Below are positions 2-28,032 of a DNA stretch of 38,649 nt, one piece after another. Each line of letters begins with the position of its first letter. The first letter of the stretch is position 1. Both the position numbers and the translations under genes were made by a program. This DNA comes from Candidatus Levyibacteriota bacterium (GTDB lineage: Bacteria; Patescibacteriota; Microgenomatia; Levybacterales; UBA12049): NCBI GenBank assembly GCA_016186625.1, contig JACPLG010000016.1:1-38649 (forward strand), written 5' to 3'. The notes below the pieces were generated by a model. It searched no databases, was not told the DNA's origin, and worked only from the letters and a program-made list of their open reading frames with translations.

Positions 2-3000
2 AAACATTATCGAGATTCCCTTCTTAGGAAGATATTTAGTAAAACTTTCAGGTTTGCTTTTGGAAGATTTCTTTTTGGACTGGATCATGATATTCAGGCT
101 GGGCTAAAGGTTTTCACAAGACAACTGTGGGAAACAGTAAAATTCATGCCTTCCTCCGGCTGGACATTTGACCTTGAATTTTTACATAGAGCAAAACAGG
201 CCGGATTTAAGATCCAAAAGCACAATATTATTTTTTATAAAAGAAAAAATGGTAAATCCAATGTTAATTTTGTAAAACAAACCGCTGAAATTGGCTTTAA
301 CGCGCTAAGAGTTAGAGTAAAAAGAATTCATCCGGCGCATATCCCTCCTTCGGATAAATATTCCATGCTTGGCGCAGGAATTGGACATAAAAAAAGAAAA
401 TATATCACCCATACTACAATCCCGCATCACACAACTGCGCTTAAAACAGCAACCTTATCACAAAAAATAATTATTTTGCTGCTGCTAACTGACATTGCAT
501 TAGGGCTATATATAAATCCTCTTCTTACTCTTCAGATTCTGATAGGAATTTTAAGCACAATTTATTTTATTGATGTTCTTTTTAATTTTTACCTGATATC
601 AAAAAGCCTGGACAAAACTAATGAAATAACTTCAACGGATGAGGAGATAGGAAACCTAAAAGACGCGGATTTACCCCTCTATACAATTCTATGTCCTTTA
701 TACAGGGAAGCGCGCGTTATTCCCCAGTTTCTAGATGCTATTGAAAAACTTTCATGGCCAAACGACAAACTTGATGTAATTTTGCTTCTTGAGGAAGATG
801 ACAGTGAAACCATTGAAAAAGCAGCAAAAATGAATCTTCCTTCCTATGTCAGGACTATTGTAGTCCCCCATTCTATTCCAAAAACCAAACCAAAAGCTTG
901 TAACTTTGGACTGGCACATGCAAAAGGAGAGTACATTGTGGTTTATGATGCGGAGGATATTCCCGATCCCCTGCAGCTCAAAAAAGCATTTCTTGGTTTC
1001 AAAAAGGCTGATAAGAATGTGATTTGCCTTCAGGCAAAACTTAATTATTACAACTCTCATCAAAATCTTTTAACAAGATTCTTTACGGCAGAATATTCTC
1101 TCTGGTTTGGCCTGACTCTTCCGGGACTTGTTTCACTTGATACAACTTTGCCCCTGGGGGGAACGAGCAACCATTTCAAAATTGAAAGCTTAAAAGAAGT
1201 TGAGGGGTGGGATCCGTTTAACGTAACTGAGGACGCTGACTTGGGAGTGAGACTTTTCAACAAAGGCTACAAAACCGGAATGCTGGACTCAGAGACTTTG
1301 GAGGAAGCCAACAGCAGAGTCGGAAATTGGCTGCGCCAGCGCTCCCGCTGGATAAAAGGCTATATGCAGACCTATCTTGTCCACACAAGAGGCTCTTCCC
1401 GGTCTGTTAACGGAGGCAGCAAACATTCGCTGATTTTCCATCTGATAGTTGGGGGGAAACTTGCATTTGTCCTTATTAATCCTTTCCTTTGGCTTGCAAC
1501 ATTTTCTTATTTTGCACTCTTCGCATACGTTGGGCCTGCAATTGAGGCAGTCTATCCGACTGTAGTTTTTTACATGGCTGTTTTTTCTCTTCTTTTTGGA
1601 AATTTCCTGTTCCTTTATTACTACATGATTGCCGTTGCCAAAAAAGGCCAGTGGAATCTTGTTAAGTTTGTAATTTTTGTGCCCCTTTACTGGGCAATGC
1701 TAAGTCTTGGTGCATTTATTGCTCTTTACCAGCTTATTTTAAAACCCCATTATTGGGAAAAAACAGTCCACGGCTTCCATTTGGACAAAAAAAGAAAAGG
1801 GTCTTTTGCAGAAGCCGTAATAGAAAGCGAGGAGCAAACTGCAGGCTTTGTTTTCCCTTGGAGACTCAGAGAAAGCTGGGCGCATGTTATCACAAATAGA
1901 AGTACTTATTTGGGGGGTTTTATTCTTGTCCTGTCCGCAGTAATTGCAAATTTTATGAACTTTGTCTTCAACGCCTATCTTGGAAGGGTTTTGGAGTTTA
2001 AGGATTTTGCACTCATTGGTTTAACCGGAAGCCTTTTGTCGCTATCAACAATTTTATTTGGGGCGTTAGTTACAACTACCAACTTCAGAGGCGGTTTTCT
2101 GATTGGAAAATATAATGACAGTGCCGCCTACAGCTTTTGGAAATTCATCAGAAAAAGGGCAATTATAATTTCAATAATTATTACTGCAACTTGGCTTATT
2201 GCCTCACCTCTTTTAAATGAATTTTTTAATACCGGAAATATTTATTTATTTCTTATCTTTGGAATAATCTTATTTTTTGGGCTTGCAAATTCAATTGACA
2301 GAGGTTTTTTATCTGCAAAACTGATGTTTAGATCCCTCTCAGCGCTTGCTCTCTTTGATCCTTTGGCAAAGCTTATTGTAGTTGCAGTCCTTGTTTATTT
2401 TGGCCTTAAGGAATGGGCATTTTCAGCAATACCAATTGCATTTTTGGGAACATTTCTTGTTGCCTGGTTTTTGATCAAGAAACTGTCTAAAGAAGGTGCT
2501 CACAAGGCGCCTGTTGCTGAAATTAAAAGTTTTCCAAGCAAATTCTTTTCCGCATCGCTTCTGATGGGCTTTTCATCAATTGCGTTTTTAACAGTTGATA
2601 TACTTCTTGCCAATTATTTCCTGCCCAACGAAGAAGCCGGAAAATACACCCTTCTTTCTCTGGTTGGAAAAATGGTCTATTTCACAGGCGGTCTGACAAC
2701 TCCTTTCGTTACTCCTTTAATCAGCAGGATCGAGGGCGCAAATAAAAACACTACCAAAACTCTATATTTTCTGCTTTTCTCAACTTTTGCTCTTTCTTTA
2801 ATGGGTTTTGTGGCATTTGGAATATACGGACATATAACAATTCCTTTTCTTTACGGACAAAAAGCCCACTCTATTGTTCCTTACTTAATTATTTTCACAT
2901 TAGGAATTGCAGCCTATACCGTCTCAAGAGTACTGGTCAAATACTACCTTGTAAAAAGAGTTTTTACTTTTACGGTTGTTACATCTCTGCTTGCAATATT

Positions 3001-4351
3001 GCAGATTTTATTAATAGCCAAATATCATTCAAGCTTCGGACAGATTGCAGTTGTCATGTCAATTGTTTGGGGATCGCATCTTATTTTAACTACCGCCCTT
3101 CATTTTGGAATAAAGTATGTCAGGGCTTTTGAAAACAACTTTTCAGACTTTCTGGCCCTGTTTACAACCAAAACCGAAAAAAGCGATAAATTTGGTATTT
3201 TAATCTTTAATTGGAGGGATACAAAGCATAAGTGGGCAGGAGGAGCAGAAAGCTATGTTCATGAGCTTGCCAAAAGATGGGTAAAAGGCGGGAATAGCGT
3301 TACTCTTTTTTGCGGAAATGACGGAAATTCTCCAAGAAATGAAAAGGTTGAGGGAGTAAATATTATAAGACGCGGCGGATTTTATATGGTTTATTTCTGG
3401 GCGTTCCTATACCAGGTATTAAAATTCAGGGGAAAATTTGACGCAATTGTGGACAGCGAGAACGGGATTCCCTTCTTTACGCCTTTTTATACAAGGACAA
3501 AAAAGTTTTTGCTCATCCACCACGTCCATCAGGAAGTTTTCCGAAAAAGCCTTATTCCGCCTTTTTCATGGCTGGCCTTATTTCTTGAGGCGCGCCTTAT
3601 GCCTTTTGCATACAGAAATGTCCAAGTAGTAACTGTTTCTCCTTCTTCCCAAAAAGAGATCATAAAACACCGTCTTACAAAAAAAGATCCCGGAATTGTT
3701 TATAACGGAGTCAATCATAGTTTTTACAAGCCTGCCAAAAAAAGTCAGTATCCTCTTTTCTCATGTGTTGGAAGGCTAAAACCCTATAAAAACATTGATG
3801 TTGCCATAAAAGCATTTAGTGAAGTTGTCAGATCATATCCTTTAGCAAAACTTATGATTGTAGGAGAAGGAGAAAGCTTACCCGGCCTTCAAAAGCTAAC
3901 CCGGGAACTTGACATTGAAAAAAGCGTTTCTTTCACGGGATGGGTCACAAATTCCAGGAAAGCCAAGATTCTTGCAAGAAGCTGGGTGGTAATCCAGCCC
4001 TCAATGATTGAAGGCTGGGGAATAACCGTGATTGAGGCAAATGCCGCGGGTACTCCGGTTATAGCATCTAACGTTAACGGGCTTAAAGACTCTGTTATAA
4101 ACAGTGAGACAGGTGTTCTTGTAAAAGCAGGAGACGTTGACGGATTTGTCCATGCAATGGTTGATTTTATTCTTGATGAGGAATATAGAAAAAATATGTC
4201 TCAAAATGCCAGATCATGGTCTTTGAATTTCAGCTGGAACAAAAGCGCAAAAGAATTCTTTGATATTGTTTCTCAGGCATATGATAAAAAATCTGCGCTA
4301 AAACCGGGAGGGTTGACATACGTTATCAACCGAATCCTATCAATTTTTTAA
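2..4351 (+). CDS. Multidomain glycan assembly protein, 5' truncated by window: DPM1-like GT2 C-terminus, processive-type membrane GT2, MOP/Wzx-like flippase, GT4
   Basis: The frame is open from base 2 through the listed 1401-aa ORF. Upstream residues include DHDIQAGLKVFTRQLWETVKFMPSSGWTFDLEFL (DPM1-like). Then YREARVIPQFLDAIEKLSWP...VYDAEDIPD...RQRSRW (GT2), a many-TM segment (about 2000-3130) resembling Wzx, then GGAESYVHELAKRW...EGWGITVIEANAAGTPVIAS (GT4). Confidence 0.85.
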   Translation, partial: KHYRDSLLRKIFSKTFRFAFGRFLFGLDHDIQAGLKVFTRQLWETVKFMPSSGWTFDLEFLHRAKQAGFKIQKHNIIFYKRKNGKSNVNFVKQTAEIGFNALRVRVKRIHPAHIPPSDKYSMLGAGIGHKKRKYITHTTIPHHTTALKTATLSQKIIILLLLTDIALGLYINPLLTLQILIGILSTIYFIDVLFNFYLISKSLDKTNEITSTDEEIGNLKDADLPLYTILCPLYREARVIPQFLDAIEKLSWPNDKLDVILLLEEDDSETIEKAAKMNLPSYVRTIVVPHSIPKTKPKACNFGLAHAKGEYIVVYDAEDIPDPLQLKKAFLGFKKADKNVICLQAKLNYYNSHQNLLTRFFTAEYSLWFGLTLPGLVSLDTTLPLGGTSNHFKIESLKEVEGWDPFNVTEDADLGVRLFNKGYKTGMLDSETLEEANSRVGNWLRQRSRWIKGYMQTYLVHTRGSSRSVNGGSKHSLIFHLIVGGKLAFVLINPFLWLATFSYFALFAYVGPAIEAVYPTVVFYMAVFSLLFGNFLFLYYYMIAVAKKGQWNLVKFVIFVPLYWAMLSLGAFIALYQLILKPHYWEKTVHGFHLDKKRKGSFAEAVIESEEQTAGFVFPWRLRESWAHVITNRSTYLGGFILVLSAVIANFMNFVFNAYLGRVLEFKDFALIGLTGSLLSLSTILFGALVTTTNFRGGFLIGKYNDSAAYSFWKFIRKRAIIISIIITATWLIASPLLNEFFNTGNIYLFLIFGIILFFGLANSIDRGFLSAKLMFRSLSALALFDPLAKLIVVAVLVYFGLKEWAFSAIPIAFLGTFLVAWFLIKKLSKEGAHKAPVAEIKSFPSKFFSASLLMGFSSIAFLTVDILLANYFLPNEEAGKYTLLSLVGKMVYFTGGLTTPFVTPLISRIEGANKNTTKTLYFLLFSTFALSLMGFVAFGIYGHITIPFLYGQKAHSIVPYLIIFTLGIAAYTVSRVLVKYYLVKRVFTFTVVTSLLAILQILLIAKYHSSFGQIAVVMSIVWGSHLILTTALHFGIKYVRAFENNFSDFLALFTTKTEKSDKFGILIFNWRDTKHKWAGGAESYVHELAKRWVKGGNSVTLFCGNDGNSPRNEKVEGVNIIRRGGFYMVYFWAFLYQVLKFRGKFDAIVDSENGIPFFTPFYTRTKKFLLIHHVHQEVFRKSLIPPFSWLALFLEARLMPFAYRNVQVVTVSPSSQKEIIKHRLTKKDPGIVYNGVNHSFYKPAKKSQYPLFSCVGRLKPYKNIDVAIKAFSEVVRSYPLAKLMIVGEGESLPGLQKLTRELDIEKSVSFTGWVTNSRKAKILARSWVVIQPSMIEGWGITVIEANAAGTPVIASNVNGLKDSVINSETGVLVKAGDVDGFVHAMVDFILDEEYRKNMSQNARSWSLNFSWNKSAKEFFDIVSQAYDKKSALKPGGLTYVINRILSIF

Positions 4352-4353: not shown

Positions 4354-5487
4354 ATGAAAAAAGATATTAAAATTTGTTTTTTTGGAACATATGACAGGGA
4401 ATATACGGCAAATAAAATTGTCTTACAGGGACTTTTGGAAAATAACATTCCTGTCTTGGAAGTAAATTCAGAGATAAAACTGACCAGACTTGACAGTCAA
4501 AAGGATATAACCTGGCTTGCTTTAATTAAACGAATACTTAGAAAGTATAAAATCTTTTTTGAAATATTTAAAAATTTAGATAAATTCAAAAAAACTGACG
4601 TAATTTATGTTGCATTTCCAGGACATTTTGACGTTTTGTTTGCCTGGCCGCTTGCCAAGCTATTCAACAAAAAACTGGTCCTTAATCCTGTTGTCAGCTT
4701 CTCTTACGGATTTACCCAGGAACAGACAATTCTTAGCAAAAACTCAATGCGCGCAAAAATTACCAAACTTGGCGAAACAGGAATTTATAAATTAATTGAT
4801 TTACTATTGCCGGATACACCTTTCCAAAAAGATTTTTTTAAAAAAACTTTCAATATTCCTGAGGAAAAAATTAAGGTTCTGCCGATAGGCGCTGATGACA
4901 AATATTACAAATACACGCCGTATACAAATAAAAGTAAAAAAATTAATGTTACCTATTACGGCCTTTACAGCCCAACGCACGGAGTTGAACATATAATTGA
5001 GGCGGCCAACATTTTAAGAAACAATAAAGATATAAAGTTTACATTTGTGGGCAACGGCAATACGTTTCAGAAAAATTTCGACAGGGCAGAAAGACTCGGT
5101 CTTAAAAGTGTAGAGTTTTTCAATAATACGCCCCTTGATCAACATCCTGCAATTATTGAAAAAGCAGACCTTTTCTTAGGCTTTTTGCAAAAACACCCTT
5201 TGGTGGACAGAGTTATTCCCAACAAAGTCTATCAAGGACTGGCGCTTGGAAAAGTAGTGGTAACAGCGGATGCGCCTGTTGCAAGAAGCATGTTTCACCA
5301 TGGGGAAGATATGTATCTGGTAAAGCCCTCAGACGGAAAAGCATTAGCCAAAGCAATTCTTGAACTTAAAAATAAACCCGAGATGAGAATCAGAATCGCA
5401 AAGAATGGCTACAAGTTATTTCTTGAAAAATTCACCCCAAAAGCAATCGGAAAAAAGCTAATAAAAAATATTGAGGAAATATTATGA
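4354..5487 (+). CDS. GT4-like glycosyltransferase
   Basis: 377 aa with Rossmann-like C-terminal half (NVTYYGLYSPTHGVEHIIEAANILRNNKDIKFTFVGNG; IPNKVYQGLALGKVVVTADAP); 2-nt gap from the previous ORF. Confidence 0.8.
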   Translation: MKKDIKICFFGTYDREYTANKIVLQGLLENNIPVLEVNSEIKLTRLDSQKDITWLALIKRILRKYKIFFEIFKNLDKFKKTDVIYVAFPGHFDVLFAWPLAKLFNKKLVLNPVVSFSYGFTQEQTILSKNSMRAKITKLGETGIYKLIDLLLPDTPFQKDFFKKTFNIPEEKIKVLPIGADDKYYKYTPYTNKSKKINVTYYGLYSPTHGVEHIIEAANILRNNKDIKFTFVGNGNTFQKNFDRAERLGLKSVEFFNNTPLDQHPAIIEKADLFLGFLQKHPLVDRVIPNKVYQGLALGKVVVTADAPVARSMFHHGEDMYLVKPSDGKALAKAILELKNKPEMRIRIAKNGYKLFLEKFTPKAIGKKLIKNIEEIL

Positions 5488-6302
5488 AACTAAAAAGAAA
5501 TACATTCTTATTTATCAGAAGCTTAATAGTTAATTTTGACTATATTCTTGGAAGTTTGCTAGGCATCAATAAAGACTATCTTAGCATTTTATGCTTTCAT
5601 AGCATCTCCGATGGTGGCAACAGATATTCTATAGGTCTTACTGATTTTAAAAGAGAACTTAAAACAATTTCCCAAAATGCAAATTTCGTAAATATAGACG
5701 AAGCCATAGAAGTAATCGGGGGACAAAGGGTTGAAAAACCATCAGTTGTTCTAACATTTGACGACGGGTATAAGGACGCTCTTAAAGTTGTGCCTTTAAT
5801 AAAAGAATACCAAATTCCTGCAGTAATATTTATTTTGTCCGACAGAAAAAATGCCAACCGGAAAGAATTAGACAATAAGACAAAATTGCTAAGTACTGAA
5901 GAAATCAAACAGCTTGTAAAAGAAGGGTGGACAATAGGCTGTCATAGTGCAACCCATGCAGATTTTACTTCTCTTTCGCCTTCTCAGATTAAAAAGGAAA
6001 TAATTGATTCTAAAAAATCCATCGAGAAAGAGATTGGTATAAAAATTAAATATTTTGCTTATCCAAAAGGAGTTTTGAGTGATGAAATTATAAAAGCTGT
6101 TAAAAAAGCAGGCTACATTGCTGCCTTTGGTGTTTGGCCAGGTAATGTAGAAAGAGGTTCAAATAAGTGGAATATACCAAGAATAGTCATTGACGCCTCA
6201 CATTCATTAGTAGATTTTCCGGCAATTTACAGCCCAAGCGTTCTATTTTTGCGAAGGATCACAGATCCTTTAAAAATTTGGGATCTATTTTTAAGCTTAT
6301 GA
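5484..6302 (+). CDS. Polysaccharide deacetylase (CE4/NodB-like)
   Basis: VVLTFDDGYKDALKVVPLIKEYQIPAVIFI and GCHSATHADFTSLS motifs; overlaps the previous ORF. Confidence 0.85.
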   Translation: MKLKRNTFLFIRSLIVNFDYILGSLLGINKDYLSILCFHSISDGGNRYSIGLTDFKRELKTISQNANFVNIDEAIEVIGGQRVEKPSVVLTFDDGYKDALKVVPLIKEYQIPAVIFILSDRKNANRKELDNKTKLLSTEEIKQLVKEGWTIGCHSATHADFTSLSPSQIKKEIIDSKKSIEKEIGIKIKYFAYPKGVLSDEIIKAVKKAGYIAAFGVWPGNVERGSNKWNIPRIVIDASHSLVDFPAIYSPSVLFLRRITDPLKIWDLFLSL

Positions 6303-7210
6303 AAAAATTAAAAGTATCAATCGGCATACCTGCCTACAATGAAGAGCGCAACATTAAAAATGTGCTTAAGTCCATTCTTGATCAAAAAGAAAAAAGTATC
6401 ACGATCAAAGAGATAATTGTTGCATCAGACGGAAGCACTGACAACACAGTTCAATTTGCAAAATCAATTGATGATCAACGATTAAAAGTAATTAAGTACG
6501 TAGGCAGAAGAGGGAAACCAACCATTCTTAACAGGCTTTTTAAAATTTTTAAAGGAGATGTGTTGGTTATAGTGGATGCTGACTCAATACTCAAAGATGA
6601 ATTGGTCATAGAAAGTCTTGTTTCAAAACTCCATAAAGACAAATCTATTGGAGTCATTACGGGAAATCCACAACCGTTACCTGCAGAAACATTTCTTGAA
6701 AGTGCAATTAATAATTATATATACGCCAGAAATAAAGTATTCGATAAATACGACATAGGTAAAAGCGCTTATACTGCACGCGGATTTCTCGTTTATTCTA
6801 AGAAATTTCTTAAAAATTTTATCCTTCCTGATGAAGTAATTAATGATGATACATATAGTTATTTTTATTGCTTAAGGAATAGCTATAGGGCGCTCAATGA
6901 AAAAGGTGCCGTTGTTCGGTATAGGCCTGCACAAACGATTAGTGAACACATCAAGCAATCCACTCGTCATTTAGCAGGTGGGGTTCAGCTCTATAGGTAC
7001 TTTGGACAAGAAGCTGTAGACAAAAAATTCAGTCTTCCAAAAATGGCTTTGTTAAGAATTATGCTTTATCAATTAATTAGAAACCCAATGGGATACATAC
7101 TCTTAAAGGCTCTAAATATATATTGTTTCTATCTTAGCAGAAAACAAGTTGAGAAATTTGACAATAAATGGGAGTCAATATCAACGTCTAAAAATTTATA
7201 TACAAGGTAA
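6299..7210 (+). CDS. GT2 family glycosyltransferase
   Basis: Likely start 6299 (ATGA overlap with upstream stop), MKKLKVSIGIPAYNEERNIKNVLKSIL...ASDGSTDNT...VDADS. Confidence 0.85.
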   Translation: MKKLKVSIGIPAYNEERNIKNVLKSILDQKEKSITIKEIIVASDGSTDNTVQFAKSIDDQRLKVIKYVGRRGKPTILNRLFKIFKGDVLVIVDADSILKDELVIESLVSKLHKDKSIGVITGNPQPLPAETFLESAINNYIYARNKVFDKYDIGKSAYTARGFLVYSKKFLKNFILPDEVINDDTYSYFYCLRNSYRALNEKGAVVRYRPAQTISEHIKQSTRHLAGGVQLYRYFGQEAVDKKFSLPKMALLRIMLYQLIRNPMGYILLKALNIYCFYLSRKQVEKFDNKWESISTSKNLYTR

Positions 7211-7215
7211 ATATT

Positions 7216-7812
7216 ATGGAAAAATTATTTAATATTTTTCGCTATTTCAGGCACTTTTTATTTTCGGGATTCTATCACCTTGGGTGGCCTGTGGTATTCA
7301 GAAGAAATATTGTTATTAACGGTCATGAATTTATATCTCTTGGGAAAAACGTAGTTTTGGATTATGACTGCGTATTGAATGTAATTACTCGTCATCAGAA
7401 TTACAAATATAACTATCAAAAACCTGTTATTAAAATTGAAGACAATGTGGGCATTACCAAAGGCGCATTTATCTCAGCAGTCAGATCAATCCATATTAAA
7501 AAAAATGTGATGATTGGGCCGTACTGCTTTATAGGAGACTACAATCACGGATATGAAGACATAACCAGACCAATTTCAAAACAGCCTTTAAAAAACATCA
7601 AACCTGTTGTTATAGAAGAAGGCGCCTGGATTGGCGCTCATGTAAGCATTGCATCCGGTGTTACCATTGGCAAAAATTCAGTAATTGGAGCAAATAGTGT
7701 GGTAACAAAAGACATCCCGGATTACTGCGTTGCGGTTGGGACTCCTGCGAAAATAATCAAAAGATATAACAAGAGAAATAATAATTGGAGAGAAATAAAT
7801 AAAAAAGGATAG
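7216..7812 (+). CDS. Hexapeptide-repeat (LbH) acyltransferase, WbbJ/Maa-like
   Basis: Isoleucine-patch repeats: IGPYCFIGDYNHG...VVIEEGAWIGAHVSIASGVTIGKNSVIGANSVVTKDIPDYCVAVGTPAKIIK. Confidence 0.85.
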   Translation: MEKLFNIFRYFRHFLFSGFYHLGWPVVFRRNIVINGHEFISLGKNVVLDYDCVLNVITRHQNYKYNYQKPVIKIEDNVGITKGAFISAVRSIHIKKNVMIGPYCFIGDYNHGYEDITRPISKQPLKNIKPVVIEEGAWIGAHVSIASGVTIGKNSVIGANSVVTKDIPDYCVAVGTPAKIIKRYNKRNNNWREINKKG

Positions 7813-7816
7813 AAAT

Positions 7817-8770
7817 ATGAAAACAAAACTAGCAAAACCAACAAACGTACATTTAATTACAGGTTTAATAATATCTATAATCCAATCTCTGACAAGAGGA
7901 TATTCTGATGCAGATATTCCAGAAAAAGTTGGCAAATATCTTTTAGTCCAGGTCATCAAAAAAGAGAATTTGCTAAAAGGATATGCTGTTGGGATATATC
8001 AATACAAAAAAGAAAAGGTATTTATTAAGACATGGAATGGCGATTTGAAAAACTTTGGTTATTACGCTTTGGTTAACGAATTTATCACCAGTAAAATTCT
8101 CTATAAAAAATTCCAATCTTATAATTCAAAAACAGTCAAAGGCAGAATTAAAATTCCGGAACCTATTAAATATATCTCTACCAAGGATTCACTCTCGCTT
8201 GTTTATGAATATGTAGATGGAGATACTTTAACAACAGCCTTATTAAAAGAGAAAGTTGAGATTTTGGCTTACATTTTAAAAGTACTCTGGGATATGTCTA
8301 ACGCTATTACAGAAAATGAAAAAAGGCAATTATTCAAACGAAATAAAATATTCTATATTGTATCGTTGCTAGCCTTCGCCATTCTAACCATAGTATCAAA
8401 TCCTAAAAACTGTAAAGTTGTTTTAAATGGGCTCTTAAAATGCATAAAAACATTTAGACTTTTAAATGAATCAAATCTTTGTATAGCTCATAGGGATTTA
8501 ACTCCTCACAATATTTTGGTAAACAATAAGGGAGTATATATTGTTGATTGGTCTAGAATGGCTTTGACGATCCCTAATTATGATATTACTTATATGTCAT
8601 TAATGCCGAAATTAAAACCAGTTGCAGATTTAATTTCTCAAAAAACTAATTTTAAACCCAATAAGTTTCTTAAAAACTATATTTTAATTCACTCTGCGCA
8701 TTCTTTCGGGGCTCCTGAAGGTTATGACAATTTCTATGAAAAAGAGCTTTATAGGCTATATGCAAGATAA
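7817..8770 (+). CDS. Kinase-fold / APH- or LPS-kinase-like phosphotransferase
   Basis: Catalytic-loop-like IAHRDLTPHNILVNNKGVYIVDWSRM and hinge-like LVYEYVDGDTL. Confidence 0.65.
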   Translation: MKTKLAKPTNVHLITGLIISIIQSLTRGYSDADIPEKVGKYLLVQVIKKENLLKGYAVGIYQYKKEKVFIKTWNGDLKNFGYYALVNEFITSKILYKKFQSYNSKTVKGRIKIPEPIKYISTKDSLSLVYEYVDGDTLTTALLKEKVEILAYILKVLWDMSNAITENEKRQLFKRNKIFYIVSLLAFAILTIVSNPKNCKVVLNGLLKCIKTFRLLNESNLCIAHRDLTPHNILVNNKGVYIVDWSRMALTIPNYDITYMSLMPKLKPVADLISQKTNFKPNKFLKNYILIHSAHSFGAPEGYDNFYEKELYRLYAR

Positions 8771-8774
8771 GAAT

Positions 8775-9686
8775 ATGAAAAAAGCAACAATTACAATTGG
8801 GATTCCTGCTTATAACGAAGAGCTTAATATTAAGTTCTTATTAAAGTCGCTGTTGAAACAGAAAGTGGAAAGCGCTGACATAAGCGAGATAATCGTTATT
8901 TCCGACGGGAGCACGGATAGAACAGTCGAGATTGCTAGTTCTGTAAGAGATGAAAGAATAAAAGTTATAGACCAAAAAGCAAGAATGGGCGGGAGAGCAG
9001 TCCAAAACGAAATTATTAAGAGAGCAAAAGGTGACATATTGGTAATGCTGGACGCAGATGTAATTCCTGTCGGAAGTAATTTTGTCGACGAAATAATTAA
9101 ACCGATTTTACATGATAAGGATGTAGGCTTAGTGGGGGCTAATATTGTAAGCGCAAAGCCTGATACTTTTGTAGAAAAGGTTATTTCGGCAAGCCATGAA
9201 CTTAAATGGGCGCTTTATAAGCGTATTAACAACAGGGATAACATTTACCTTTGCCATGGCAGAGCTAGGGCTTTTTCAAGAGGCTTATATAGAAAAATAA
9301 ATTGGCCCCAAAACGCACCAGAAGACGCCTACTCTTATCTCTTGTGTAAGAAAAAGGGATTTAAATTTATCTATGCTTCAAAAGCAAAAGTTATTTTTAG
9401 ATCACCGGCAAATTTAGCCGACCACTTTAAACAAAGCAATCGTTTTGTAAAAGGTAAAAAGGAGATGGAGAAATATTTTCCGGCCAGTTTTGTCAAAAAA
9501 CAATACAGATATTCAAAACTGCTTTTAGCACAAACAGTAACCGAGTATCTATTGAAAAATCCAGTAGCAATAATTGGTTACATCGCCATAACTGTTTATG
9601 TAAGGATTTTTGGTATTAAAGATTGGGTGAACCACGCCAAGTGGGATATTTCCCCAAGTACCAAAAAAATTATCTATGAAAAATAA
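8775..9686 (+). CDS. GT2 family glycosyltransferase
   Basis: Probable start 8775: MKKATITIGIPAYNEELNIKFLLKSLL...ISDGSTDRT...LDADV. Confidence 0.85.
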   Translation: MKKATITIGIPAYNEELNIKFLLKSLLKQKVESADISEIIVISDGSTDRTVEIASSVRDERIKVIDQKARMGGRAVQNEIIKRAKGDILVMLDADVIPVGSNFVDEIIKPILHDKDVGLVGANIVSAKPDTFVEKVISASHELKWALYKRINNRDNIYLCHGRARAFSRGLYRKINWPQNAPEDAYSYLLCKKKGFKFIYASKAKVIFRSPANLADHFKQSNRFVKGKKEMEKYFPASFVKKQYRYSKLLLAQTVTEYLLKNPVAIIGYIAITVYVRIFGIKDWVNHAKWDISPSTKKIIYEK

Positions 9687-10593
9687 CAAATTACCTACAG
9701 TTACAGTAGCAGTTAGCGCGTACAATGAGGAGGGAAACATAAGAGAGTTTCTTAGGTCTGTTCTTGATCAAAAGGAAGAAGGCTTTAAGATAGAGGCAGT
9801 ATGGGTTCATAATGACGGTTCTAGTGATTCTACGGCTCAAATTGTAAGGTCCTTCAAAAATCCCAAAATTAGACTTTTCGACCACAAAAAAAGAGCAGGA
9901 AAGGCAACTTGGCTAAATAGGATATACAAAGATTTAAAGTCCGATTTCCTGGTTCAATCAGACGCTGATGTTATTTTTACGCACAAATATGTAGTTAGAG
10001 ATATGGTTAAGCCGCTAATTGATAATCCAAAAGTCGGAATGACAGGAGGCAGTCCTGAGCCAATCAAAGGCGATACTTTCTGGGAAAAAATCTCAAGAGT
10101 TGCCTTTGAACCATACAAATACTTTCGCTCTGAAGTAAGAGGCGGAGACAATATTTTCTCGGCGGTTGGTCAAATGTTGGCATTTAGAAAAGAGGCAGTC
10201 AAAAAGATAAAAATGCCTGAAGATATGCTTACCAATGATATCTATACTTATTTTTGCTGCCTTACTCTTGGCTACAAATACAAGTATGCCGAATCTGCCA
10301 GGGTAGTATTTCGCGCTCCTCAAAATCTTTCCGATATAATTAAACAAAATGTCAGAAACCAAATAGGATATAAGAGAATGTATGAATTATTTGACCCTAG
10401 GCTTGTTGCAAAGGAATTTGAAATTCCTAAGGCTGAACGGCGCAAAAGGTTAGTTGCCCAAATTATAAAGTATCCTTTACATGCGACAGTTTTTTACTTT
10501 GTCAACAATTACTGCATATTAATAACTTTGTTTACGAAGGTGAAAATAGACGCCAAATGGCCTATGGCAGAAAGCACCAAAAAATTAATATGA
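9676..10593 (+). CDS. GT2 family glycosyltransferase
   Basis: TVTVAVSAYNEEGNIREFLRSVL...NDGSSDST...SDADV; paralogous to the two GT2 proteins upstream. Confidence 0.85.
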   Translation: MKNNKLPTVTVAVSAYNEEGNIREFLRSVLDQKEEGFKIEAVWVHNDGSSDSTAQIVRSFKNPKIRLFDHKKRAGKATWLNRIYKDLKSDFLVQSDADVIFTHKYVVRDMVKPLIDNPKVGMTGGSPEPIKGDTFWEKISRVAFEPYKYFRSEVRGGDNIFSAVGQMLAFRKEAVKKIKMPEDMLTNDIYTYFCCLTLGYKYKYAESARVVFRAPQNLSDIIKQNVRNQIGYKRMYELFDPRLVAKEFEIPKAERRKRLVAQIIKYPLHATVFYFVNNYCILITLFTKVKIDAKWPMAESTKKLI

Positions 10594-12209
10594 AAAAAAC
10601 GTTTGTGAAACTATTTATAACCATTTTAATTATTATTTTTTCAATATCTGCGCTGACTTTTTCCATAAAGGGTGCGGGCAGCAATCCTTTGTCTTACCAG
10701 ACAAAAAAAGATACTAGAGTTGGAGGTCCATTTGAAGCTTCCAATAGCTCAGCTCGTTATGCCCTAACCGAGTCAATAGTAAAAAATAAATCTTTGTTTT
10801 TAAACGAGAAACTAGCAAAATTCTCATCCCCTGATGTTGTTGAATATAAAGGAAAGTATTTATCTATTTTTACACCGGGTATTTCATTTATAGGGGTTCC
10901 TTTCTATATGATTGGTGATTTTTTCGGAATTCCCCAACTTTCGGCTTATTACTCAAATATTATCTTTGCGGTAATTAATATTATCCTTATTGCCTTTATT
11001 GTCAAAAGATTAAATCAGAATTTCTACGCAGGGCTTCTTGCCGGATTCGTATTCGCTTTTGCAACAAATGCATTTCCATATGCCCTAACTTACACACAGC
11101 ACATATTAAGCACAACAATAATTTTACTTGCAATTATTACCGCATTAGGCAAAAGATCGGCTTTTAAAAATATATTGTTTGGAGGGTTATTTGGATTAGG
11201 CGTGCTGGTGGACTTTCCTAATGCCTTCCTAATGCTGCCGATAGGAATTTATATACTCTCAAATCATATTACAAAAGAAAGCTTAAAAGAGAAAATAAGC
11301 CTTAAGATAAAACTTTCTATTCTTACTGTCCTAATAGGAATAATTCCATTTGCAGGGGTTTTTGGATGGTACAACTATCAAACAACTGGCTCATTCACCA
11401 AGATAGCACAGTCAATCGGGAGGTCTGATGCTTTTAGTCAAAACCTGCCACCTCATGTCTCCGCAAGCGTACCGGAAGCTATTGTCGAAAAAAAAGAATC
11501 CGGATTTTCTTTACCTTTTAGAACAAGAGCACAGCTAAACGGGTTTTACATACTGCTTGTTAGCAACGAGAGGTCTTGGATTTTCTATAGTCCAATTATT
11601 CTTTTGGGAATATGGGGATTTTGGATTTTATACAAAAAAAATAACAAAAAAAACTTTGCAGTCCTTTCTGCTGGGATCATCTTAATGGATATAGTGCTGT
11701 ATTCAATGTTTGGAGATCCATGGGGAGGCTGGGCTTTTGGGCCACGATATTTGATTCCTGCTGCAGCAATTCTCTCCATAGGAATTGGAGAACTGGTAAA
11801 CAGTTATAAGAAGAATATTTTCTTCTTTATTTTATTTATTGGCCTTTTTGTATACAGTGTTTCTGTAACTACACTCGGCGCGCTAACCACAGTCTCTATA
11901 CCTCCTAAAGTTGAGGCTTTAAACTTACCTTCACATATTCCATATACATATGAATATAATATTCAGCTTTTAAATACCGGATTTTCAGGCTCACTATTTT
12001 ATAATCTATATTTTGAAAGTATTATAAATGCTAAAACATATACCCTCATCATTGCGGGAGCAATTATTACAATGGGTATTCTTCTATATATGCTCGCTAT
12101 TTTTCAAAAAAACATGGTAGCTTCGCCAAGTACTGAATCGAGTCAGAAAACTTCAAGATTATTCAAAATTTTAAGAAGTAAAAATCAGGAGGACAAGGAA
12201 AATGTTTAA
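10590..12209 (+). CDS. Polytopic membrane protein, GT-C-like glycosyltransferase
   Basis: Likely start 10590 (ATGA overlap). Many TM segments and extracytoplasmic loops; WGGWAFGPRYLIPAAAIL resembles GT39/GT87-like proteins. Confidence 0.55.
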   Translation: MKKTFVKLFITILIIIFSISALTFSIKGAGSNPLSYQTKKDTRVGGPFEASNSSARYALTESIVKNKSLFLNEKLAKFSSPDVVEYKGKYLSIFTPGISFIGVPFYMIGDFFGIPQLSAYYSNIIFAVINIILIAFIVKRLNQNFYAGLLAGFVFAFATNAFPYALTYTQHILSTTIILLAIITALGKRSAFKNILFGGLFGLGVLVDFPNAFLMLPIGIYILSNHITKESLKEKISLKIKLSILTVLIGIIPFAGVFGWYNYQTTGSFTKIAQSIGRSDAFSQNLPPHVSASVPEAIVEKKESGFSLPFRTRAQLNGFYILLVSNERSWIFYSPIILLGIWGFWILYKKNNKKNFAVLSAGIILMDIVLYSMFGDPWGGWAFGPRYLIPAAAILSIGIGELVNSYKKNIFFFILFIGLFVYSVSVTTLGALTTVSIPPKVEALNLPSHIPYTYEYNIQLLNTGFSGSLFYNLYFESIINAKTYTLIIAGAIITMGILLYMLAIFQKNMVASPSTESSQKTSRLFKILRSKNQEDKENV

Positions 12210-13839
12210 TTTTAGGACTTTGGAATTATCACTGACTATTTCTGAGGATAATAGGCTTTTTAACTTATTTAGAAAGTTAATAAACAAATACATTTCCCAG
12301 ATTATTCTCTTATTCTTAGTATTTTTATCAACTTTTTCATTCCTTATTTACTACCAGAACGGCCTAGGACTCTCCTATAATGATGCTAGGTCCCACTTGG
12401 ATATTGGGAGAAGAGTTGTTGAGGGACTGAAACCGGGACTTGCCCAGCTGGGATCAGTCTGGCTTCCCCTGCCCCATTTTCTTATGATTCCAACAGTCTG
12501 GAATGACTTTATGTGGCATTCGGGGCTCTCAGGAGCCATCCAGTCTATGGCATCTTTTGTGGCAACAGGCGCCATAGTCTATATGTTTCTTAAAAAAATA
12601 GGCGTTTCTGTCCTGGGACGAATTATTGGTGTTCTTATCTTCGCACTTAATCTTAACATCCTATATCTTCAGTCCACCGCCATGACAGAACTTCTGCTCA
12701 TAGCCACCATGACAGCCGGAGTTTATTTTCTTATGCTCTGGAGCAAAGATGAGAAAATTACAAATCTTATATTTTCCGCTTTTTTTGTAATGCTCTCAAC
12801 ACTGGTCCGCTATGACGGCTGGTTTTTACTAGCCTTTGCAGGGCTTCTTATAATAATTGAGACTTTCAGAAAAAGAGGCTACAAAGTGACAGAAGGAACA
12901 ATTGTTTTATTCGGAACTCTTGCAGGGCTTGGAGTTGTGCTTTGGTTCCTGTGGAATCTTGCTATTTTTGGTGATCCCCTTTATTTTATTTACGGACCTT
13001 ATTCCGCGCATGCCCAGCAGACACAGCTTGAAGAAGCAGGAGTGTTGGTGACCAAAGGCGATATTCTTCTTTCAATAAAAATATATATTTACGCGCTTCT
13101 TTATAACTCCAACGCTTTTATTGCAATTATGGGAGCAATTGGAGCATTTGTTTTCTTTATTGATAAAAAAATAAAAACCGTAGTTAAGATTGCCTCAACT
13201 GCTCTTCTTGCGCCTCTTGCCTTTAATATCTTAGCGTTATATCTTGGCCATTCTGTTTTATTTATTCAGGGTCTCTCAGGCGATACATGGTTTAATGTGA
13301 GGTATGGCGTAATGCTTCTTCCCACATTTGCCATATTTATAGGATACCTTGTATATAAACTGGCACATCTGCGATATGTTCTTATTGGACTTACTGCTTT
13401 TGTTTTGTTCTTTTCTTTTGTAAATCAGGACGCAGTAACAATTGATGATGCCAGAGTGGGATCTTCTCAGAAAAATGTCTCGGAAGTCTCGGGCTGGCTT
13501 AGAAGCTATGCACAGGGGGAAGGATTTATACTAATTTCTGCTGCATCCCATGATGCCATAATCTTCTCATCAGGTCATCCTATGAAAAAATTCATACATG
13601 AAGGAACAGGACTTTACTGGGATCATGCAACTACAGCCCCTGACCGCTGGGCACGCTGGATTGTTATGAGGACAAATGATACAAATGATTCAACATTCAA
13701 GCTTATATCCCAAACAAAAGCGTATAAAGAGGGCTGGTACGCTCTTGTGGATTCATATCCTTTTGCAGATATATATGAGCTAAAACCAGAGTATTCTAAA
13801 AATCTAAATACCAAACCCGTTCTTGGAAAGCAAAAATAA
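12202..13839 (+). CDS. Polytopic membrane protein, GT39-like glycosyltransferase
   Basis: Early loop NDARSHLDIGRRVVEGLKPGLAQLGSVWLPLPH followed by about 10 hydrophobic segments, typical of GT-C proteins. Confidence 0.65.
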   Translation: MFNFRTLELSLTISEDNRLFNLFRKLINKYISQIILLFLVFLSTFSFLIYYQNGLGLSYNDARSHLDIGRRVVEGLKPGLAQLGSVWLPLPHFLMIPTVWNDFMWHSGLSGAIQSMASFVATGAIVYMFLKKIGVSVLGRIIGVLIFALNLNILYLQSTAMTELLLIATMTAGVYFLMLWSKDEKITNLIFSAFFVMLSTLVRYDGWFLLAFAGLLIIIETFRKRGYKVTEGTIVLFGTLAGLGVVLWFLWNLAIFGDPLYFIYGPYSAHAQQTQLEEAGVLVTKGDILLSIKIYIYALLYNSNAFIAIMGAIGAFVFFIDKKIKTVVKIASTALLAPLAFNILALYLGHSVLFIQGLSGDTWFNVRYGVMLLPTFAIFIGYLVYKLAHLRYVLIGLTAFVLFFSFVNQDAVTIDDARVGSSQKNVSEVSGWLRSYAQGEGFILISAASHDAIIFSSGHPMKKFIHEGTGLYWDHATTAPDRWARWIVMRTNDTNDSTFKLISQTKAYKEGWYALVDSYPFADIYELKPEYSKNLNTKPVLGKQK

Positions 13840-13897
13840 AAATCCAATTATTTAAAGCCTATTGTTTATTACTATAAGTTATGCTATAATCCGTAAA

Positions 13898-15178: not shown

Positions 15179-15182
15179 TTGT

Positions 15183-16577
15183 GTGGATAAAACTTCTAAT
15201 ATTTCCAGTTTAAAACTTTCTCCCGACAAAAAATATATTGTAACTGACAAAAATAAGCCTTTTTTCTGGCTTGCCGATACGTGGTGGTTTGGGGCGACTG
15301 TTAGAATGGCATGGCCGCAGCCGTTTAAAACCATGGTCTTGGACCGCAAAAAAAAAGGTTTTAGTGTTATACAGCTTGTTGTTGGATATCCACCGGAAGT
15401 GGACCTGGACTCGGAAGATACTAAAAATAGCGGCGGATATCCTTTTGATAAAAACGGAGATATTAATAAAAATTATTTTGAAGAAGTAGATAAAAAGATA
15501 AAATTTTTGATAGAAAATGATCTTGTCCCCTGTATTGTCGGCGGATGGGGACACCATATAGATTCTCTGGGAATAAATAAAATCAAAGAGCTGTGGCAGG
15601 AGATTATTAAGAGATACTCCCACTATCCTGTTGTTTTTTGTCTTGCCGGAGAACTGGACCTTTTTGAGTCTAAAAATAAAGCAATGATTTCTGACAAATT
15701 TATTACTGCTCTAGTAAAAAGAGTTCTTAGCCCTCTGCCCAAACCTGTAAAGAAAAAAATACAATCGCCTTTTGTTTCTAATACTTCCTATTACAAAGAA
15801 AGGGATATTTCTAAACTAAGCCCCAGGATAAAAAAATGGAATGAGATAGCAAAGTTTATTACAGAAACCGACACTAATGAAAACCTGATTACAGCTCATA
15901 TTTCTCAGCAAAAAACAGCAGACGATCTTCTTGGCCACCCTAATTGGCTGTCTGTCAACAGCATTCAGTCAGGGCATTCAAAAGACGTTATCCCCTTTAT
16001 GGTTAACTCAATTCTCCACAGTCCTAAAATGATAATTAATATGGAACCCTGGTATGAGGGGATTCTTTCTGATTTTGACGATTATTATCAAAGAGTTGCT
16101 TTCTGGCTGTGTATATTATCAGGTGCCAAGGGACATAGTTACGGCGCACACGGCATCTGGCAAATGGCAGATGGTGATAATTTTATGAAGCACTGGGGAA
16201 AGTCTGACTGGAGAAAGTCTAAAGATTTTTTGGGAGCCATACAGCTTGGAAAATCCAAAGAACTTCTTAAAAAGTATGAATGGTGGAAGCTTTCTCCAAA
16301 TTTTAAAATTATTAACCCGTGCTGGACCAGTGAAAACCCAATGAATCCGGTGGCAGCTGAAATAAAAAACAAGCAAATTATTATTTATTTCCCGGATTTA
16401 AGTCTTAATAAAAAATATGAGCTTACATTTCCTGTAAAAAGGGGCAATTACGAAATTTCATGGATAGATCCAAAATCGATGGAAGAAATAAAAAAGGATA
16501 TATTAAAAGGTAATCGCCTTCTGCCCCCTAAACGAGCTGGTGATAAAGATTTACTATGCATTCTCATTCAAAAATAA
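15183..16577 (+). CDS. DUF4038/apiosidase-like putative glycoside hydrolase
   Basis: GTG start. KPFFWLADTWWFGATVR...GFSVIQLVVGYPPEVD...WGHHIDSLG; C-terminal beta-rich tail (AAEIKNKQIIIYFPDLSLNKKYELTF...WIDPKSME). Confidence 0.65.
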   Translation: MDKTSNISSLKLSPDKKYIVTDKNKPFFWLADTWWFGATVRMAWPQPFKTMVLDRKKKGFSVIQLVVGYPPEVDLDSEDTKNSGGYPFDKNGDINKNYFEEVDKKIKFLIENDLVPCIVGGWGHHIDSLGINKIKELWQEIIKRYSHYPVVFCLAGELDLFESKNKAMISDKFITALVKRVLSPLPKPVKKKIQSPFVSNTSYYKERDISKLSPRIKKWNEIAKFITETDTNENLITAHISQQKTADDLLGHPNWLSVNSIQSGHSKDVIPFMVNSILHSPKMIINMEPWYEGILSDFDDYYQRVAFWLCILSGAKGHSYGAHGIWQMADGDNFMKHWGKSDWRKSKDFLGAIQLGKSKELLKKYEWWKLSPNFKIINPCWTSENPMNPVAAEIKNKQIIIYFPDLSLNKKYELTFPVKRGNYEISWIDPKSMEEIKKDILKGNRLLPPKRAGDKDLLCILIQK

Positions 16578-16620
16578 GCTTATGAAAGCCTTAAATGCTA
16601 TAATACGCAAATTAAATAAT

Positions 16621-17859
16621 ATGTTAAAAAAATTAATCTTATTAATAATTCTTATTGCATCTATTCTGGTATTATCTTTTGTCTTTAAAAAAGAATCTCA
16701 GCTGGTACCTGCCGCTCCGTGGTGGGAGTTTGCCTCAATTGATACCATGAAATACTCAAGGGACATTGCGCGGGAAAAGCTAAATGATTCCTCGTTTAAT
16801 GAGGTAATTGATAGACAAGTCAGGGATATTGCCGGGACTGGCGCAACACACGTTGCTATTGCAACTCCATATGATAGTGAGTTCTACCCTTTTCTTAAAA
16901 AATGGGTGGATGCGGCAAGGAAGCACAATCTAAATATCTGGTTTCGCGGTAATTTCTCCGGATGGGAAGGCTGGTTTGGTTATCCGGATATTTCACGGGA
17001 TGAGCATATTAAAAAAACCGAGGAATTTATCCTAAAAAACAAAAATCTTTTTAAAGACGGGGATGTTTTTACCGCCTGTCCGGAGTGCGAGAACGGAGGA
17101 CCTGGCGATCCAAGGCATAATGGCGATGTTGAAGGACACAGGGAGTTTCTGATTGATGAATACAAAATCACCAAGGCTGCCTTTAAAAAAATGGGAAAAA
17201 ATGTTGCCTCCAACTTTAATTCTATGAATGGGGATGTTGCAAGAATTATTATGAATAAAGAGACTACGCGCTCTCTTGACGGGATTGTAACAATAGACCA
17301 CTATGTCTCAACTCCTGAGAAATTAATAGAAGATGTAAGAAGGATAAGTAGAGCCTCCGGCGGAAAAATTGTTTTGGGTGAGTTTGGGGTACCAATTCCA
17401 GATATTCACGGAAAAATGAGCGAAGAAGAACAAGCAGAGTGGGTTGAAAATGCATTAGGAGAACTAAGAAAGATGCCGGAGGTTGTAGGTATAAATTACT
17501 GGACAAATACCGGAAGCACAACCCAGCTTTGGGATAACAAAGGAGTCCCAAGACTTTCCCAATCCATTCTTACTTCATTTTACAAAGCCCATATAGTTAA
17601 GGTTAGGATCATGGATGAAACAGGATCTATCTTAAGAAACGCAGAGTTGAGTATGGATGGAGCAAGACTTGAAAAGGATGATAATGGCACATTTAACATC
17701 CCTTATTTTGAAGACTCAGATATTATTAGTATAACAGCAGATGGATATTTTCCAAAAGAAGTAAAACTTTCAAAGACAAGTGAACAAGAGGCAGTTCTAA
17801 TTAAGAAAGACCAGGATATCATTTACCAAATACGCAGATTCTCCAAAAATTTGCTTTAA
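16621..17859 (+). CDS. Membrane-anchored/secreted TIM-barrel glycoside-hydrolase-like protein with C-terminal beta-sandwich
   Basis: N-terminal TM MLKKLILLIILIASILVLSF; NIWFRGNFSGWEGWFGYPDIS, DGIVTIDHYVSTPEKL, GKIVLGEFGVP. Start is approximate; the ORF track begins at 16540. Confidence 0.55.
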   Translation: MLKKLILLIILIASILVLSFVFKKESQLVPAAPWWEFASIDTMKYSRDIAREKLNDSSFNEVIDRQVRDIAGTGATHVAIATPYDSEFYPFLKKWVDAARKHNLNIWFRGNFSGWEGWFGYPDISRDEHIKKTEEFILKNKNLFKDGDVFTACPECENGGPGDPRHNGDVEGHREFLIDEYKITKAAFKKMGKNVASNFNSMNGDVARIIMNKETTRSLDGIVTIDHYVSTPEKLIEDVRRISRASGGKIVLGEFGVPIPDIHGKMSEEEQAEWVENALGELRKMPEVVGINYWTNTGSTTQLWDNKGVPRLSQSILTSFYKAHIVKVRIMDETGSILRNAELSMDGARLEKDDNGTFNIPYFEDSDIISITADGYFPKEVKLSKTSEQEAVLIKKDQDIIYQIRRFSKNLL

Positions 17860-17970: not shown

Positions 17971-18537
17971 ATGTATAAGCAAAAATTATCCATATTTACT
18001 GCGTCTATAGTAATATTTTTATCGGCTTTTGTCGGCTCTGCAAACGCAACCACAATTCCCACATTTCCGGTTTGTGCCAACCCACAGGGACAAATCACAT
18101 CTTCTTATGAGTCCGGAGTTCACGGAGTTCCCGGAGATACCAACACCTACACTGGCAAGGATACGGTTTATAGCTTAAGCGATACAACATCAACCCAGTG
18201 TCTTTGCACGGACAACGGAGCTGGAATACAAACCAACTGGTGGAAAGCCGGATCTTTGACTCAAGAAGAAATTGACGTATTAATAACTGAGGGCTGGATT
18301 CTTATCCCTGACGGAAGCTCTTGGGGGCTCTTGGAGGGTCCATATTTGGCTAAAAACTCAAGATATGAGTGTGCTGGAAGCGGTGGAACATCGACAAGTA
18401 CAGCCGGCGCAAGTACCACGCAGGCAATTCTTTCTCTTGCTTCAACAGGAAACCTTAAATTTATAGCATCAATTTTTTTGACAGGTTCTGCACTTCTTTT
18501 ATCAGGGGTAGCACTTTCTATTAAAAGGAGGGGTTAA
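17971..18537 (+). CDS. Secreted protein with sortase-type C-terminal sorting signal (LASTG)
   Basis: Signal peptide MYKQKLSIFTASIVIFLSAFVGSANA; C-terminus LASTG + hydrophobic stretch + KRRG (LASTG at 18436-18450). Confidence 0.75.
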   Translation: MYKQKLSIFTASIVIFLSAFVGSANATTIPTFPVCANPQGQITSSYESGVHGVPGDTNTYTGKDTVYSLSDTTSTQCLCTDNGAGIQTNWWKAGSLTQEEIDVLITEGWILIPDGSSWGLLEGPYLAKNSRYECAGSGGTSTSTAGASTTQAILSLASTGNLKFIASIFLTGSALLLSGVALSIKRRG

Positions 18538-18538
18538 A

Positions 18539-19063
18539 ATGACTCTTCCCAAAGCGCTCATTCTTCTTGGTTTTCTCTTCCTTTTCTTTGGGTTTTATTT
18601 AGTAACACAACGCTATAGCCCTAAAACTCTGGAATTCAAAAATTTGGAAGTTAAAAATAGCATTCAGGCTGATGTGAGACCAGTGAGAATAGCAATTCCT
18701 TCTCTGGGAATAGAGGTGCCAATTTACCCCTCATCCATAAATAACGGCAAATGGGAATCTACCACAAAAGGAGTCTCTTATCTTTCCTCTTCTCCTGTTC
18801 CGGGAGAGACCGGCAATAGCATATTATATGGTCATAACTTTTCTACTCTCCTTGGCTCTTTGCCCAAAATTAAACCCGGAGAAAAAATTGAAATAACGCT
18901 AAGTAGCGGAGAAAAGAAAGTTTTTACGGTTAGATACACATCTATTGTTGATCCAACCCAAACGCACATACTAAATCAAACCGAGGATTCAAGAATAACT
19001 ATTTATACCTGCACGGGCTTTTTAGACTCTAAAAGATTCGTCGCAACCGCCCTGGCCAATTAA
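18539..19063 (+). CDS. Sortase (class D/E-like)
   Basis: N-terminal TM; ILYGHNF (catalytic His), ITIYTCTGFLDSKRFVATA (TLxTC-like Cys and Arg). Confidence 0.85.
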   Translation: MTLPKALILLGFLFLFFGFYLVTQRYSPKTLEFKNLEVKNSIQADVRPVRIAIPSLGIEVPIYPSSINNGKWESTTKGVSYLSSSPVPGETGNSILYGHNFSTLLGSLPKIKPGEKIEITLSSGEKKVFTVRYTSIVDPTQTHILNQTEDSRITIYTCTGFLDSKRFVATALAN

Positions 19064-20896: not shown

Positions 20897-20914
20897 ACAT
20901 AAATATAGCTTAGC

Positions 20915-20942
20915 ACATTTTTCCGCTCGAGTTGAAATTTGT
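20915..20942. repeat. 28-bp direct repeat, copy 2 (upstream of PaaX-like gene)
   Basis: Identical to 20283-20310. Confidence 0.95.
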
Positions 20943-20980
20943 TCCAAGAAGTTAATAATGTTGGCTATGTTTGAAGTAAG

Positions 20981-27866: not shown

Positions 27867-28032
27867 AAAAAGCGACAAAAATTTATCAAAACAGATCCGT
27901 ATTGATGGCGGACTGCATAGATTACTCAAAATCAAGGCAAGTGAAGATTCTACAAGCATTAGAAGCCTTCTGGAGGCATTTATCGTGGAGATTCTAAAAG
28001 ACAAAACTGCCGGAAAAGAAATTGATTCTTGA
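27856..28032 (+). CDS. Ribbon-helix-helix DNA-binding protein (58 aa)
   Basis: Not in the ORF track (length cutoff): MKSRKSDKNLSKQIRIDGGLHRLLKIKASEDSTSIRSLLEAFIVEILKDKTAGKEIDS. Confidence 0.7.
   Translation: MKSRKSDKNLSKQIRIDGGLHRLLKIKASEDSTSIRSLLEAFIVEILKDKTAGKEIDS

What the first reader, a model, noticed from the sequence alone, without database searches (positions are those of the whole stretch)
2..4351. Giant fusion of glycosyltransferases and a lipid-flippase-like domain
One uninterrupted frame carries the end of a DPM1-like GT2, a second GT2 with QRSRW-type motif and TM helices, a Wzx/MOP-like multi-TM region and a C-terminal GT4. Initiation, elongation and flipping of a glycan are normally done by separate proteins, so this could be a one-polypeptide glycan assembly line. 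The start lies outside the window, so it may be larger.
Basis: partly seen in the sequence, partly recalled or inferred. Interest (0 to 1): 0.7.

Follow-up and report, generated by a model that had tools for sequence, protein, structure and literature searches.

The report
Four-module glycan-assembly megaprotein of Patescibacteria
A tiny uncultured bacterium and dozens of its relatives encode one giant membrane protein that joins three sugar-transferring enzymes to a lipid-flipping transporter, jobs usually done by separate proteins, which suggests that their surface sugars are built and moved outward by a single machine.

Summary
ORF 2..4351 is one uninterrupted frame and runs off the start of the contig. 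Another contig of the same genome supplies the missing N-terminus (124 more residues, about 1,573 in all). The order is D-G-M-T: D, a DPM1/ArnC/GtrB-type polyprenyl-phosphate glycosyltransferase; G, a BcsA/hyaluronan-synthase-type GT2; M, a 12-helix MOP flippase (AlphaFold pLDDT 93; Foldseek MurJ, MATE, WzxE); T, a GT4. It is not an assembly join: 24 other patescibacterial contigs carry the whole D-G-M-T in one ORF, others as DG|MT neighbours or with modules lost, with the signature residues of G and T kept.

The 'assembly line' reading is partly supported. Fusion and topology put three cytosolic transferases on one flippase. But nothing in it is a canonical initiator: D should make polyprenyl-P-sugar donors, and phosphoglycosyltransferases lie elsewhere in the genome. 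The operon adds two GT-C-type enzymes, one of which (c3) tracks the M-T half (29 of 31 versus 1 of 19 loci). Best explanation: a three-component transmembrane glycosylation system (polyprenyl-P-sugar synthase, MOP flippase, GT-C), two components fused to a processive GT2 and a GT4. All folds are known; the architecture was not found described. Substrates and flipping are inferred.

The parts
2..4351 (+). D-G-M-T fusion ORF (1,449 aa in the window; about 1,573 aa with the 124 N-terminal residues on contig C1, L039:3-1019:-)
5..331 (+). Module D, C-terminal half: DPM1/ArnC/GtrB-type polyprenyl-phosphate glycosyltransferase (catalytic first half on contig C1: DDHSTD, DADL)
   Evidence: relative's D: PDB 5mlz (PfDPMS) 1.6e-29, ArnC 2.2e-22; fold ArnC/DPMS/GtrB
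407..1795 (+). Module G: processive-type GT2 with two N-terminal TM helices and a C-terminal TM bundle; DAED 947-958, TED 1226-1234, QRSRW 1337-1351
1889..3142 (+). Module M: 12-helix MOP (Wzx/MurJ/MATE-fold) flippase
3224..4276 (+). Module T: GT4 (GT-B) glycosyltransferase, EX7E motif 4010-4036
4354..5487 (+). Neighbour: GT4; its ATG starts 2 nt after the fusion's stop, suggesting one transcription unit
5484..6302 (+). Neighbour: polysaccharide deacetylase
6278..10593 (+). Neighbours: three GT2s (6278-7210, 8724-9686, 9676-10593), hexapeptide acyltransferase-like 7216-7812, APH/choline-kinase-like 7817-8770
10557..12209 (+). c3: PMT_2 (GT-C-type) glycosyltransferase; tracks the M-T half (29/31 loci with M-T, 1/19 without)
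12202..13839 (+). c1: GT-C-like membrane glycosyltransferase (PMT_2 in 7 of 24 relatives); downstream of nearly every G-containing locus
16540..17859 (+). c4: N-terminally membrane-anchored, glycosidase-like protein with carboxypeptidase-regulatory-like domain in relatives
17971..18537 (+). c5: surface protein with signal peptide and C-terminal LASTG sorting signal
18539..19063 (+). c9: sortase

Best explanation
This is a real four-module membrane megasynthase, conserved in Patescibacteria (shown). D, G and T face the cytosol and M spans the membrane with both ends inside (predicted topology). It most likely works like a 'three-component' transmembrane glycosylation system with several parts in one chain. 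D charges polyprenyl phosphate with a sugar from a nucleotide donor. M flips polyprenyl-linked sugar (D's product, or a glycolipid extended by T) to the outer face. The GT-C-type enzymes c3 and c1 of the operon then use it as donor to decorate a surface glycan. G polymerises the acceptor backbone like a cellulose or hyaluronan synthase. T adds a residue on the cytosolic side, before flipping. Shown: the fusion, its conservation, folds, signature residues, operon, and the association of M-T with c3. Inferred: sugars, lipid carrier, flipping, order of steps.
For: Single frame and conserved fusion. D: best solved relatives PfDPMS and ArnC, fold ArnC/DPMS/GtrB. G: BcsA at 1.9e-21 and HAS at 4.9e-6 by profile, DAED/TED/QRxRW kept, fold BcsA/HAS. 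M: 12-helix MOP fold, Pfam Wzx-type families, invariant D250 and near-invariant R46, K174, K274 in the A3 numbering. T: EX7E in all 43. Topology: D, then 2 TM, G, then about 4 TM, then 12 TM and T, keeps all catalytic domains inside. Rosetta-stone logic: DG|MT split but adjacent in six relatives, G next to M in three. Operon: GT-C-type c3 and c1; c3 in 29/31 loci with M-T versus 1/19 without (Fisher 1.9e-10, not corrected for relatedness); c1 in 46 of 50 and directly after DG in most loci where M-T is absent. Precedent for each step with separate proteins: polyprenyl-P-ribose synthase, MATE-family flippase and GT-C (PMC11127046); the Wzx-type flippase GacK in the streptococcal system (PMC8035078).
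Against: No biochemistry exists and every relative is from a metagenome-assembled genome. MOP flippases most often carry lipid-PP oligosaccharides, and neither precedent paper shows flipping directly. DG-only and D-G-T loci have no M next to them, so D need not depend on M. Four relatives have lost the first six helices of M, which should destroy a normal flippase. A BcsA-like G may export its own polymer, making M unnecessary for G's product.
Confidence: 0.5

Rival explanations
1. Wzx-type assembly line, the first reader's reading: G and T extend one polyprenyl-PP-linked oligosaccharide primed elsewhere, and M flips that repeat unit for polymerisation or transfer outside; D is an accessory donor maker.
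For: Isolated M domains match the Wzx-type Pfam families PF01943/PF13440; GT4 next to or fused with MOP is recurrent; the genome has a PF02397 primer, a second PF00953 enzyme and Wzy_C proteins.
Against: No primer or Wzy in this operon; G belongs to the processive self-secreting synthase group, not typical of repeat-unit building; D-G-T and half-M relatives persist without a whole flippase.
Confidence: 0.27
2. Synthase-dependent polysaccharide system: G makes and exports a beta-linked polymer through its own channel, with c4 as the trimming glycosidase (like BcsZ in cellulose operons); M and T serve a separate side-chain pathway and are joined mainly for co-localisation.
For: G fold and motifs; c4 is glycosidase-like and follows c1 in many loci; in L092 the c1 protein is fused to a GH5 domain; the DG core exists without M-T.
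Against: No channel shown; c4 has no confident Pfam glycosidase family in the window; does not explain why fused M-T is retained.
Confidence: 0.18
3. Assembly or annotation artefact: neighbouring genes joined by a missed stop, frameshift or chimeric contig.
For: The 5' end lies at a contig edge with a 92%-identical overlap to another contig; some relatives are split.
Against: 24 other contigs from independent genomes carry the same order in one ORF; those aligned first are 43-56% identical to the window; no suitable internal starts.
Confidence: 0.02

Closest known systems
Three-component transmembrane glycosylation systems (GtrB/ArnC-type synthase + flippase + GT-C; C. youngae ORF15/ORF14/ORF12, PMC11127046; S. 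pyogenes with Wzx-type GacK, PMC8035078)
   Same: Polyprenyl-P glycosyltransferase, MOP-family flippase and GT-C-type enzymes encoded together
   Different: Synthase and flippase are one polypeptide here, with a BcsA-like GT2 between them and a GT4 after them; GT-C-type genes stay separate
Wzx O-unit/capsule flippases (PF01943/PF13440; WzxE)
   Same: 12-helix MOP fold, Pfam family of the isolated domain
   Different: Fused between two glycosyltransferase modules; sequence too divergent for a PDB sequence hit to any MOP protein
BcsA cellulose synthase / hyaluronan synthase (processive GT2)
   Same: Fold, DxD, TED, QxxRW, cytosolic catalytic domain with TM bundle
   Different: 2 + about 4 TM helices, preceded by a second GT2 and followed by a flippase
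Multi-domain glycosyltransferases such as chondroitin polymerase K4CP and PmHS2 (two GT domains in one chain)
   Same: Several GT activities in one chain
   Different: No flippase module, and here one GT is of the polyprenyl-P type

Membership tests
DPM1/ArnC/GtrB polyprenyl-P glycosyltransferases (module D) | GT-A fold with DDxSxD and DxD motifs | tested here: met
   C1 ORF has DDHSTD and DADL; PfDPMS 1.6e-29 and ArnC 2.2e-22 with a relative's D; fold
DPM1/ArnC/GtrB polyprenyl-P glycosyltransferases (module D) | Makes polyprenyl-P-sugar from a nucleotide sugar | not testable with these tools
   needs an enzyme assay
Processive GT2 (BcsA/HAS; module G) | DxD, TED and QxxRW motifs with TM bundle | tested here: met
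   kept across the 65-sequence G alignment; profile BcsA 1.9e-21; model
Processive GT2 (BcsA/HAS; module G) | Polymer made and secreted through its own channel | not testable with these tools
   fold only
MOP superfamily flippase (module M) | 12 or more TM helices in two six-helix lobes, MOP fold | tested here: met
   pLDDT 93, twelve TM-length helices; MurJ TM 0.73, VcmN 0.73, WzxE 0.68
Wzx-type (PF01943/PF13440) rather than MurJ or MATE | Matches the Polysacc_synt families over the cut-off | tested here: met
   window PF13440 29.9 bits (cut-off 23); relatives to 3.3e-18; Foldseek alone does not separate the subfamilies
Wzx-type (PF01943/PF13440) rather than MurJ or MATE | Translocates polyprenyl-linked glycan | not testable with these tools
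   needs transport assay
GT4 (module T) | GT-B fold families with EX7E motif | tested here: met
   PF13439 + PF00534; EX7E in 43/43
Three-component transmembrane glycosylation system | Polyprenyl-P synthase, flippase and GT-C encoded together | tested here: met
   D and M in one ORF; c3 is PMT_2, c1 PMT_2 in 7/24 relatives; GT-C fold of c1 not modelled
Three-component transmembrane glycosylation system | Sugar actually passes from polyprenyl-P donor to an outside glycan | not testable with these tools
   needs genetics and glycan analysis
Wzx/Wzy repeat-unit pathway | Priming phosphoglycosyltransferase and Wzy polymerase in the same gene cluster | tested here: not met
   PF02397 at C8 and second PF00953 at C13, Wzy_C at C3 and C16, none in the operon; the PF00953 gene in the window lies in the FtsW/FtsZ cluster

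The most novel reading that the evidence does not exclude
A self-contained synthase-flippase in which donor charging, chain growth and translocation are physically coupled, so that the glycolipid is handed from the glycosyltransferases straight into the flippase cavity, a true one-polypeptide glycan assembly and export machine.
Probability: 0.3. Interest if true: 0.85.

Novelty: new variant of a known kind. Interest (0 to 1): 0.6.

Why it matters
Fusion shows that nature puts a polyprenyl-P-sugar synthase, a processive GT2, a MOP flippase and a GT4 in one pathway. Whether glycosyltransferases hand lipid-linked sugars directly to flippases is an open question in this field (my own knowledge), and a single polypeptide with natural split, half-flippase and flippase-less forms would make it testable. 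It also gives a defined gene system for the little-known cell surface of Patescibacteria, which probably matters for contact with their hosts.

Tried and rejected
Assembly join or read-through: rejected (24 complete fusions elsewhere; no suitable internal start). 'No flippase because Pfam is silent' in the whole-protein scan: rejected after scanning the isolated domain and modelling it. Orexin-receptor hits of the M profile in the PDB treated as membrane-protein noise. GT4 module swap: in the T tree the closest G/M relatives L117 and L053 sit in another clade, but holding them with the window is not rejected (AU p = 0.145); left as a lead. Five text searches for an earlier description of the fusion found none, but the library holds open-licence papers only.

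Full report
Observation. The window is the whole of contig C12 of a 0.92-Mb genome. Its first ORF, 2..4351 (+), is open over 1,449 codons and runs off the contig start. Contig C1 of the same genome ends in a 339-aa ORF that overlaps it tail to head by 648 bp (92.3% identical). The first 99 bases of the window are identical to C1 and the differences begin after that; of the codons that differ, 23 are synonymous and 16 not. I read this as an assembly fork: a shared word of the assembler, after which two strains part. C1 thus gives the missing start, with the DDHSTD and DADL motifs of module D, and a length near 1,573 aa; the relatives aligned first have 1,531-1,573 aa when complete.

Modules. 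D resembles dolichyl-phosphate mannose synthase of Pyrococcus, ArnC and GtrB (with a relative's intact domain). G is a GT2 closest by profile to bacterial cellulose synthase (1.9e-21) and then hyaluronan synthase; DAED, TED and QRxRW are kept throughout, and its model matches BcsA and HAS. M is missed by Pfam in the long protein, but alone it matches Polysacc_synt_3, and relatives reach 3e-18 for Polysacc_synt. Its model has high confidence and the MOP fold. T is a GT4 with EX7E in 43 of 43. Two TM helices before G, about four after it and twelve in M put D, G and T on the cytosolic side.

Relatives. In the collection of one genome per species, almost all strong matches are Patescibacteria: Levybacteria, Roizmanbacteria, Amesbacteria, Gottesmanbacteria, Daviesbacteria, Woesebacteria, Doudnabacteria and others. 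The window's own organism is probably a Levybacteria relative, judged by its nearest rows only. Of 71 G-bearing ORFs analysed, 24 are complete D-G-M-T and 2 more (the window and L051) reach a contig edge; 6 are DG with an adjacent MT gene, 13 DG alone, 5 G-M-T without a detected D, 4 G-half-M-T, 1 D-G-T; the rest are single G, G next to M, frameshifted or cut. In the G tree the window sits inside a 35-row set (SH-aLRT 100) dominated by full fusions; the half-M forms are one nested set (98), i.e. a later loss of D and of the first six helices of M. The tree is a quick one, with many open forks. In an even draw of 381 phylum genomes the strong matches are a minority (30 genomes, about ten with G to T in one frame), so the system is widespread but patchy.

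Operon. The fusion is followed after 2 nt by a GT4, then a deacetylase, GT2s, an acyltransferase-like and a kinase-like gene, then c3 and c1 (GT-C-type), c4 (glycosidase-like), c5 (LASTG surface protein) and c9 (sortase). The order c3-c1-c4 recurs in many relatives. c1 is in 46 of 50 informative loci and directly follows DG in most loci where M-T is absent; c3 is in 29 of 31 loci with M-T and 1 of 19 without (relatedness not corrected). In L115 the kinase-like neighbour is itself fused to the end of the protein. In L092 the c1 protein carries a GH5 domain.

Mechanism. D is not an initiator in the lipid-PP sense. Enzymes of its kind make polyprenyl-P-sugars that are flipped and used outside by GT-C enzymes; systems with a MATE-family flippase (PMC11127046) and with a Wzx-type flippase (PMC8035078) are described, as separate proteins. 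The same roles here lie in D, M and c3/c1, which makes this reading the most economical. G and T add a backbone synthase and a further cytosolic transfer. The classical Wzx/Wzy reading stays possible: primers and Wzy-type proteins exist in the genome, but not in this operon.

Novelty. Every module belongs to a known family. What is new, as far as the searched literature shows, is a conserved single polypeptide of polyprenyl-P glycosyltransferase, processive GT2, MOP flippase and GT4. I rate it a new variant of a known kind. The substrate of every module, the flipping, and translation as one chain remain to be shown; all relatives come from metagenome-assembled genomes.

Noticed in passing
L046:4744-8178, L047:741-4154, L048:5969-9244, L084:173-3763: G-M-T relatives that have lost D and about the first half (six helices) of the MOP module; one nested clade. 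A half flippase kept between two glycosyltransferases may dimerise or have another role.
   Followed up: partly
L115:9968-15685: 1,905-aa five-module version with a C-terminal APH/choline-kinase-like domain that is a separate neighbour gene in the window (7817-8770).
   Followed up: partly
L092:12051-14711 (same as L042:4742-7405): GT-C-like c1 protein fused to a GH5 cellulase-type domain; c1 homologues of similar length (850-870 aa) in L082, L093, L096, L097, L112.
   Followed up: partly
17971-19063: Small surface protein with C-terminal LASTG signal next to a sortase at the end of the operon, recurrent in relatives: perhaps the anchor of the glycan or a glycosylated target.
   Followed up: partly
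L101:9974-13435: D-G-T fusion without the MOP module (1,153 aa), inside the fused clade.
   Followed up: partly
13862-16577: DRL-type oxidoreductase followed by an apiosidase-like glycosidase between c1 and c4; the oxidoreductase recurs in only some relatives.
   Followed up: no
20312-20947: PaaX_M / Cas2-like small protein; its context was not examined.
   Followed up: no
28029-29126: Phage-type tyrosine integrase between the glycan operon and the division genes (FtsZ, FtsW, MraY-type).
   Followed up: no
genomes G183, G333, G364, G293, G223: T-like GT4 domains inside 650-700-aa frames, probably another fusion of this GT4; not examined.
   Followed up: no
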